From assembly GCF_009834765.1 (NCBI RefSeq), contig NZ_WVHP01000025.1:186001-250000 (forward strand): DNA of 64,000 bases. Direction: 5' to 3'. The stretch is from Saccharibacter sp. EH611 (GTDB lineage: Bacteria; Pseudomonadota; Alphaproteobacteria; Acetobacterales; Acetobacteraceae). The notes under the pieces are model-generated. The model saw only the letters and a list, made by a program, of their open reading frames with translations. It was not told where the DNA came from and ran no database searches. Made by a program: the position numbers and the translations under genes. Shown one piece after another: positions 59,603 through 62,294 of this stretch (its first letter is position 1; every line of letters starts with the position of its first letter).

Positions 59603-60787
59603 TCAGCGGTTAAGAGCGCTCTTCAGCTTTGCGGCGAGGTCTGTATTCTCCCACGTGAAATTATCCAGCGCAGGGTCAGGAATACGACCAAAATGCCCGT
59701 AAGCAGCGGTCTTGCTATAGATCGGACGATTCAAGCGCAGATGCTGACGGATACCGCGTGGGGAGAGATCCATAATCTCATTAAGAAGCGCCCCCAGACG
59801 GGCTTCATCCACATCTTTCCCCGTGCCGTCAAGGTCTACATAGACAGACAGCGGACGGGAAACACCAATCGCGTAGCTGAGCTGAATGGTGCAGCGATCG
59901 GCAAGGTCAGCCGCGACAACATTCTTTGCCAGATAGCGCGCGGCATAAGCAGCGGAACGATCCACCTTGGTGGGGTCTTTACCAGAGAAGGCGCCGCCAC
60001 CGTGAGGTGCTGCACCGCCATAGGTATCAACAATGATCTTACGGCCTGTTAGACCAGCGTCGCCATCAGGGCCACCAATGACGAAGTTGCCTGTTGGATT
60101 GACGTAAAACTCATTGTCAGGGCACATCCAGCCTTCAGGCAGAACATCACGAGCTGTCTGCTTTACCATCTCGCGGATCGTGTCTTGGCTCATATTCGCT
60201 TCATGCTGGGTGGACACCACGATGGAGTTCACTCCAACAGGCTTACCATCAACATAGCGCAATGTGACTTGGCTTTTCGCGTCTGGCAGAAGGCCAGCGC
60301 CGCGTGGGTCACCTTGTTTGCGGTAGTCGCGGATACGCTCAAGAAGGGTTTGTGCATAAAAGAGCGGGGCTGGCATGAGCTCTGGCGTTTCGCGCGTTGC
60401 AAAGCCGAACATAATGCCCTGATCGCCAGCACCTTCATCTTTATCGCCCGCGCTATCAACGCCAGCAGCGATGTCAGCAGATTGAGCGTGAAGATGAGAG
60501 ACAATATCAGCTTTTTTCCAAGAAAAACCTTCTTGGTCATAGCCGATATCTTTGATGGCCTCGCGGGCACGGTCGATCAGGGTCTTTTCAACCGCGGCCG
60601 GCCCACGCACTTCCCCAGCGAGCACAACGCGGTTTGTGGTCACCAGTGTTTCACAGGCTACGCGTGCTTCCGGGTCGGCCTCCATATAAGCGTCTAGGAC
60701 AGTATCAGAGATACGGTCTGCAACTTTGTCAGGATGGCCCTCAGAGACAGATTCAGAGGTGAAAAGGAAATCGCCGTAATTGCGCAC
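59603..60787 (-). CDS. metK: S-adenosylmethionine synthetase
   Basis: 394 residues; start GTG 60787 with GAGG 8 bases upstream. It makes SAM from methionine and ATP. Signatures: [30 protein letters not shown] and the phosphate loop [19 protein letters not shown]. The start codon lies inside a small stem (CACTCA with TGAGTG), and a terminator-like hairpin with a competing stem is 28-65 bases upstream, so expression is probably controlled at the RNA level. Confidence 0.97.
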
Positions 60788-60814
60788 TCAGGGACCTCGC
60801 AGGGAATGAGTGGT

Positions 60815-60852
60815 GAAAAAAAGGGCTACGATCATGCCCTTGATGGCAAGGG
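60815..60852 (-). promoter_or_regulatory. metK leader: intrinsic terminator with an alternative anti-terminator stem
   Basis: On the minus strand AAGGGC (60841-60836) and GCCCTT (60826-60821) with a 9-base loop form a stem followed by seven Ts, a complete intrinsic terminator about 28 bases before metK. The first arm can pair instead with the segment just upstream: CCCTTG (60852-60847), CCAT, CAAGGG (60842-60837). The two pairings exclude each other. Two more small stems lie upstream (60865-60877 and 60882-60898). This is the design of an attenuator or riboswitch; no known SAM riboswitch class could be recognised by eye. Confidence 0.65.
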
Positions 60853-60904
60853 ATAAACCGCAGCATGAGGGACTCATCGCTTGGCGTAAATAACGCCACG
60901 GGTC

Positions 60905-60948
60905 AAGGGGAAAGGCACTTTTAAGACAGAGAAGTGCTCATTCCCCTT
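60905..60948. other. Hairpin between dapB and the metK leader
   Basis: AAGGGGAA (60905-60912) pairs with TTCCCCTT (60941-60948), and GCACTT (60915-60920) with AAGTGC (60932-60937). It begins about 14 bases past the dapB stop. There is no T-run on the minus strand; TTTATTTT follows on the plus strand. It may separate the dapB and metK transcripts. Confidence 0.5.
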
Positions 60949-60962
60949 TATTTTACAACAAG

Positions 60963-62006: not shown

Positions 62007-62294
62007 ATGAAAAAAGATGATGATTTTTCTGACAAAGGTGAAGAAAATTACAAGCGTAACGTACCGTTAGAAACTTGTGAGATGGAGGCCATATATTGTA
62101 CGCAGGAAGAGGCCCCTGAGGGAGAAGCAGGTTGGTATGTCGTGATGGGCGATATAATAAATTGTGACGTTTTTGCGTCTCAGCAGGCGGCTGATGCTTG
62201 GATTAATCAGGGTGGCTCGGGTTATTTAAAGCCGAAACCTCTTTATCCGCCTGAATATTTCATACAGCTTTATGGTGAAGATAATAATTCTTGA
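62007..62294 (+). CDS. Small acidic protein of unknown function
   Basis: 95 residues. It is strongly acidic at the N-terminus (MKKDDDFSDKGEENYKR), then has a compact segment with two cysteines (LETCEMEAIYC) and GWYVVMGDIINCDVFASQQA, ending in PLYPPEYFIQLYGEDNN. No signal peptide or membrane helix. The upstream DNA is A+T-rich, and the composition differs from dapB and dnaJ on either side, so it may be foreign. No family is recognised; an immunity- or antitoxin-like role is only a guess from its size and acidity. Confidence 0.6.
   Translation: MKKDDDFSDKGEENYKRNVPLETCEMEAIYCTQEEAPEGEAGWYVVMGDIINCDVFASQQAADAWINQGGSGYLKPKPLYPPEYFIQLYGEDNNS

What the first reader, a model, noticed from the sequence alone, without database searches (positions are those of the whole stretch)
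60788..60960. Possible new riboswitch or attenuator in the metK leader
Seen: a complete intrinsic terminator (stem plus T7) about 28 bases before metK, an upstream CCCTTG stem that excludes it, two further small stems, and a stem over the GTG start. Known: metK is often controlled by SAM riboswitches, but I could not match the conserved cores of SAM-I, SAM-II or SAM/SAH. Inference: an uncharacterised SAM- or methionine-sensing leader in acetic acid bacteria.
Basis: partly seen in the sequence, partly recalled or inferred. Interest (0 to 1): 0.65.

Follow-up and report, generated by a model that had tools for sequence, protein, structure and literature searches.

The report
Ultraconserved hairpin at metK start
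In acetic acid bacteria the gene for S-adenosylmethionine synthetase begins with a 28-base hairpin over its ribosome site and start codon that is letter-for-letter the same (except one base) in 47 species of 12 genera, behind a terminator-like hairpin, which points to an undescribed switch on this essential gene whose signal is unknown.

Summary
Hairpin A (60864-60825, minus strand, then CC-T7) is supported by covariation: in 11 relatives of two genera all pairs form, 6 of 7 pairs change on both sides, 0/500 shuffles match. The CCCTTG stem lies inside hairpin A and does not compete with it; the small upstream stems are not conserved. The striking part is the start stem: CACTCATTCCCTGNGAGGTCCCTGAGTG (60812-60785) occurs once per genome, always at metK, in 47 of 397 Acetobacteraceae genomes (12 genera) without one mismatch although 3 were allowed. 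The longest comparable run in metK itself is 8 nt, at neighbouring gene starts 4-5 nt. It was not found outside the family. No Rfam family matches. I read it as an undescribed translational operator of metK, joined to an attenuator-like hairpin in several genera and transcribed from a family-wide CTTGAC-type promoter. SAM or methionine sensing is possible but untested; unvarying stems and the lack of a conserved upstream aptamer speak against a classical SAM riboswitch.

The parts
60785..60812 (-). Element B: invariant 28-nt start-codon hairpin CACTCATTCCCTGNGAGGTCCCTGAGTG. Outer stem 60812-60807 with 60790-60785, inner CCU 60803-60801 with AGG 60797-60795; Shine-Dalgarno GAGG 60798-60795; GTG start 60787-60785; the only variable base is 60799
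   Evidence: 47/47 copies without mismatch in 12 genera; 27 of 28 columns invariant in 38 distinct loci, against at most 20 in any 28-nt window of metK, 8 at the dapB start and 7 downstream of metK; fold -7.0 kcal/mol
60825..60864 (-). Hairpin A: terminator-like stem-loop; conserved helix 60864-60858 with 60831-60825, extended to 9 bp; nested inner helix 60852-60847 with 60842-60837
   Evidence: Covariation in 11 sequences of two genera: 100% of cells paired, 6/7 pairs with both sides changed, 0/500 shuffles, slid controls 23-51% paired; RNAalifold agrees
60813..60824 (-). CC-T7-CAC pyrimidine tract between hairpin A and element B (U-run of the terminator)
   Evidence: Sequence. T7-T8 in the own genus, T6 in L007, T4-T7 in g33; only TTCT or TTTT in g55
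60879..60907 (-). Promoter-like bipartite motif CTTGAC (60907-60902) and TTACGCCAAGC (60889-60879; relatives TTCCGYCAARC)
   Evidence: CTTGAC in 66 of 72 metK leaders with the second block at fixed spacing. Promoter function inferred
59603..60787 (-). metK, S-adenosylmethionine synthetase, 394 aa, GTG start
   Evidence: Pfam PF00438, PF02772, PF02773
60963..61742 (-). dapB, upstream gene on the same strand
   Evidence: Pfam DapB_N and DapB_C

Best explanation
The metK leader of this clade of acetic acid bacteria is a two-part cis-regulatory RNA. Transcription probably starts just after the CTTGAC-N17-YCAARC motif. The short leader first forms hairpin A, an intrinsic-terminator-like attenuator in the own genus and several others. 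It then forms element B, a 28-nt hairpin that holds the Shine-Dalgarno sequence and the GTG start codon. Element B is read in a sequence-specific way by something in trans, most likely a dedicated RNA-binding protein (MetK itself or a SAM-responsive factor), which sets how often metK is translated; that its stem, loops and start codon do not vary reflects this recognition. Shown: the anatomy, the extreme conservation of B, the covariation of A, restriction to one clade, no known family. Inferred: the transcription start, that B acts at the RNA level, that a trans factor reads it, and any link to SAM or methionine.
For: The boundaries of B coincide with the hairpin ends and with the start codon; 60 nt upstream no column is invariant, and after codon 2 ordinary wobble variation resumes. 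The start codon is GTG in all bearers and ATG in the other Acetobacteraceae leaders inspected, so the start codon joined the stem. The single free base lies in the middle of the hairpin loop. B is the most stable start-region fold of 43 in the window and lies downstream of the conserved promoter-like motif. Hairpin A covaries. Single copy, only at metK.
Against: The stem of B has no covariation at all, so its pairing is not proven by comparison. In longer contexts (-75..+12) predicted pairing of the outer stem averages only 0.59. Hairpin A has a weak U-run in g55 and no counterpart is evident in g86. No trans factor has been identified. Invariance of both strands would also fit a DNA operator.
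Confidence: 0.5

Rival explanations
1. Element B is a very small translational riboswitch that itself binds SAM (or SAH or methionine) and locks the ribosome site.
For: metK is the usual target of SAM feedback; SD and start codon are inside the hairpin; the free base sits at the second position of a possible GNRA loop (GNGA); no other conserved region is present. The organism uses a SAM-II riboswitch for another methionine gene, so SAM sensing by RNA exists in this pathway.
Against: Helices of riboswitch aptamers normally covary; this outer stem is identical in 12 genera. At 28 nt it is smaller than the known SAM aptamers (own knowledge). No known SAM class matches.
Confidence: 0.18
2. Element B is a DNA operator of a dedicated transcription factor that overlaps the start codon (half-sites CACTCA/TGAGTG two helical turns apart, or TCCCTG repeats 11 bp apart).
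For: Perfect inverted repeat; invariance of both strands; direct repeat TCCCTG at 11 bp spacing (sequence). SahR regulates metK in other Proteobacteria (PMC4239095).
Against: No second site in the genome with the same half-sites; it lies about 100 nt downstream of the promoter-like motif; the inner 16 bp are equally invariant; its limits match SD and start codon. The published SahR site is a 20-bp palindrome, this one spans 28 bp (PMC4239095).
Confidence: 0.15
3. Element B is the target of a conserved trans-acting small RNA.
For: Would explain invariance of both paired and unpaired positions.
Against: No long complement exists elsewhere in the genome on either strand at up to 3 mismatches; the SAM-II leader RNA shows no special complementarity. 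Short seed pairing could not be tested.
Confidence: 0.08
4. Hairpin A is simply the dapB or leader terminator, and element B is an unusually conserved but unregulated ribosome binding site.
For: Hairpin A with T7 is an ordinary intrinsic terminator in shape; metK is essential and needed in quantity (own knowledge).
Against: Hairpin A lies downstream of the conserved promoter-like motif in the genera where both occur. Ordinary start regions in the same genomes keep at most 8 of 28 columns, and a hairpin over SD and start codon is a poor design for unregulated strong translation.
Confidence: 0.09

Closest known systems
SAM/SAH riboswitch (RF01727)
   Same: Short leader RNA upstream of metK in Alphaproteobacteria, translational control at the SD
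   Different: No sequence or model match. It is an H-type pseudoknot (PMC7367207) and reported only in Rhodobacterales (PMC4239095); here the SD and start codon lie inside a simple hairpin
SAM-II riboswitch (RF00521)
   Same: SAM control of methionine genes in Alphaproteobacteria; present once in this genome, before a MetZ-like gene
   Different: No match at metK
Translational operator hairpins bound by a protein (thrS, ribosomal protein leaders)
   Same: Hairpin over SD and start codon; sequence-specific recognition proposed
   Different: Stems of those leaders normally vary between species (own knowledge); here none do. No binding protein known
Intrinsic-terminator attenuators
   Same: Covarying hairpin followed by a U-run between promoter and gene
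   Different: No conserved antiterminator or leader peptide found; the U-run is degraded in part of the clade
SahR operators (SAH-responsive repressor)
   Same: Control metK in other Proteobacteria, palindromic site
   Different: 20-bp palindrome serving several SAM-cycle genes (PMC4239095); here a 28-nt element found only at metK

Membership tests
Known SAM/SAH riboswitch classes (Rfam) | Match to a curated covariance model | tested here: not met
   No hit in the window at gathering score, none resembling SAM or SAH families at E<=10 nor in 11 relatives at E<=1
Riboswitch (any) | Conserved core with covarying helices | tested here: inconclusive
   Hairpin A covaries; element B is invariant, so it offers no covariation
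Riboswitch (any) | Direct binding of a metabolite | not testable with these tools
   Needs in-line probing or ITC
Transcription attenuator | Stable hairpin followed by a U-run, between promoter and gene | tested here: met
   Window: hairpin A, CC, T7; covariation; promoter-like motif upstream. Weak U-run in g55
Transcription attenuator | Mutually exclusive antiterminator | tested here: not met
   CCCUUG stem is nested, not exclusive; no conserved upstream partner; small stems not conserved
Translational operator | Structure that sequesters SD and start codon | tested here: met
   Fold of the 28-mer in all three variants; pairing 0.98 alone, 0.59 in -75..+12 context; prediction only
Translational operator | Known trans-acting factor | not testable with these tools
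   No candidate identified
SahR or other DNA operator | Several sites of the same motif in the genome | tested here: not met
   Only the metK site matches the half-site palindrome exactly; a single-site operator would not be excluded by this

The most novel reading that the evidence does not exclude
Element B is a new, minimal (about 28 nt) SAM-sensing riboswitch class in which the start codon itself is part of the aptamer stem, working in tandem with a covarying attenuator hairpin.
Probability: 0.15. Interest if true: 0.9.

Novelty: new variant of a known kind. Interest (0 to 1): 0.6.

Why it matters
S-adenosylmethionine synthetase is essential, and how acetic acid bacteria control it is not described in the papers I could search. 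A non-coding stretch that keeps 27 of 28 bases through 12 genera, while the gene behind it falls to 63% identity, is exceptional for bacteria and signals strong, specific recognition. It gives a compact, testable control element in industrially used bacteria.

Tried and rejected
Known riboswitch classes. Coding explanation for B: the variable base gives TGA in one forward frame and the other third positions do not vary (sequence). Mutual exclusion of the CCCTTG stem and the terminator. A conserved upstream antisequester strand pairing with either half of B: genus medians mostly 0.2-0.9, only g30 reaches 0.01. Pairing between the SAM-II leader RNA and B. Further copies: own genome by covariance model and by palindrome, viral contigs, plasmids, 385 genomes spread over the class. 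CIRCE/HrcA: shares CACTC/GAGTG half-sites, but the spacer is 18 instead of 9 (own knowledge of CIRCE). An RNA stem CUUGAC/GYCAAG in the promoter-like motif: A-C mismatch or disrupted in most leaders, so I read it as DNA. Relation to the sister-genus element TACCCCGCNTGCTGAGAGGTCACGGGA: shares CUGNGAGGUC, but the covariance model does not find it; left open.

Full report
What was checked. The finding lies on the minus strand between dapB (Pfam DapB_N/C) and metK (Pfam S-AdoMet_synt N, M, C). The sequence and folds confirm a strong stem-loop followed by CC and seven T, and a 28-nt stem over the GTG start. The leader folds far better than shuffled sequence (z -4.8).

Known families. Rfam release 15 gives only a tRNA in the whole window at curated thresholds. 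The leader alone at E up to 10 and 11 relatives at E up to 1 show no SAM- or SAH-related family. The own genome does carry a SAM-II riboswitch before a MetZ-like gene (sequence), as reported for Gluconobacter oxydans (PMC5756330); that paper's list of seven predicted cis-elements does not include the metK leader.

Relatives. metK was located in 145 of 150 Acetobacteraceae genomes. Leaders were compared directly. Three features emerged.

First, the start-codon element. CACTCATTCCCTGNGAGGTCCCTGAGTG was sought with up to three mismatches in 397 genomes of the family: 47 genomes of 12 genera carry it, once each, with zero mismatches; only the middle base varies (C, T or A). All sampled genomes of those 12 genera have it. 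A spread of 385 genomes over the class gave only two hits, both in this family. In 38 distinct loci the run CACTCATTCCCTGNGAGGTCCCTGAGTGCG has one variable column, while pairwise identity of the metK coding sequence falls to 63%; the longest such run within metK (away from its start) is 8 nt and the best 28-nt coding window has 20 invariant columns (mean 12.4). The 60 nt upstream have none. As controls, the dapB start region and the region downstream of metK in the same genomes have longest runs of 5 and 4. On the metK tree most bearers group together, with non-bearing genera g26, g38 and g80 branching near them; the root is unsure. The element ends exactly in the start codon, which is GTG in bearers and ATG in the other Acetobacteraceae leaders inspected.

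Structure of the element. All three sequence variants fold into the same hairpin, -7.0 kcal/mol: outer stem CACUCA/UGAGUG, inner CCU/AGG with loop GNG; the Shine-Dalgarno GAGG lies in loop and inner stem, and GUG is the end of the outer stem. Alternatively GNGA can be read as a GNRA tetraloop with the free base at its second position. It is the most stable start-region fold among 43 predicted genes of the window. Predicted stability depends on context: mean outer-stem probability 0.98 alone and 0.59 with 75 nt upstream and 12 nt downstream. Because nothing varies, covariation neither supports nor refutes the stem.

Second, hairpin A. In 11 alignable leaders of the own genus and g55 (which includes a record titled uncultured Neokomagataea) the helix 60864-60858/60831-60825 is paired in every sequence and 6 of its 7 pairs change on both sides; no shuffle reaches this and slid controls pair 23-51%. 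So the terminator-like hairpin is selected as RNA. The inner CCCUUG/CAAGGG stem is part of it, not a competitor. U-runs are T7-T8 in the own genus, T6 in L007, T5 in g47, T4-T7 in g33, but only TTCT or TTTT in g55, so termination strength probably differs between genera. No counterpart is evident in g86.

Third, a promoter-like motif. CTTGAC occurs in 66 of 72 leaders with a second conserved block TTCCGYCAARC at fixed spacing, upstream of hairpin A. A lax sigma-70 consensus with a -35 box ttGnnn is published for G. oxydans (PMC5756330); the second block is not a usual -10 box. It is not repeated convincingly elsewhere in the genome. If it is the promoter, the leader holds little besides hairpin A and element B, and no space is left for a classical aptamer before the terminator.

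Tests for a switch. No upstream strand is consistently complementary to either half of the element. No divergent copies were found with a covariance model in other metK leaders or in the own genome. Three sister genera (g26, g38, g80) have a different start-region element, TACCCCGCNTGCTGAGAGGTCACGGGANGATCA, also without mismatch, which shares the core CTGNGAGGTC flanked by another possible stem CCCG/CGGG; this may be a related form with a changed stem, but three sequences are too few.

Verdict. I commit to a translational operator over the start codon plus an attenuator-like hairpin, read most likely by a protein (0.5). A SAM-binding mini-riboswitch stays possible (0.18), as do a DNA operator (0.15) and an sRNA site (0.08). 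No paper on metK leader control in acetic acid bacteria was found in the searched library.

Noticed in passing
L009, L016, L017 (metK upstream; G025, G037, G079): A second highly conserved metK start-region element, TACCCCGCNTGCTGAGAGGTCACGGGANGATCA, in three sister genera, preceded by a small hairpin GCGGY..GCCGC.
   Followed up: partly
window 60907-60879 (minus) and 66 of 72 Acetobacteraceae metK leaders: Family-wide bipartite motif CTTGAC-N12-TTCCGYCAARC, promoter-like with an unusual second block; may be a regulated or alternative sigma promoter.
   Followed up: partly
L184 1501-1580 (G000 contig C1:300651-300730): SAM-II riboswitch (68.5 bits) upstream of a MetZ-like gene in the same genome.
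   Followed up: yes
L135, L136 (genus g30), about 30 nt upstream of the element: CAGGGUUAUGAGG could pair with CUCAUUCCCUG of the element and free the ribosome site; seen clearly only in this genus (p about 0.01), weaker in the own genus.
   Followed up: partly
window 62007-62294 (+): 95-aa open frame between dapB and dnaJ on the opposite strand without a Pfam match.
   Followed up: no
window 62354-62331 (minus): Strong ordinary terminator CCCCGGAAGAACAATCTTCCGGGG-TTTTTT just after dnaJ.
   Followed up: no
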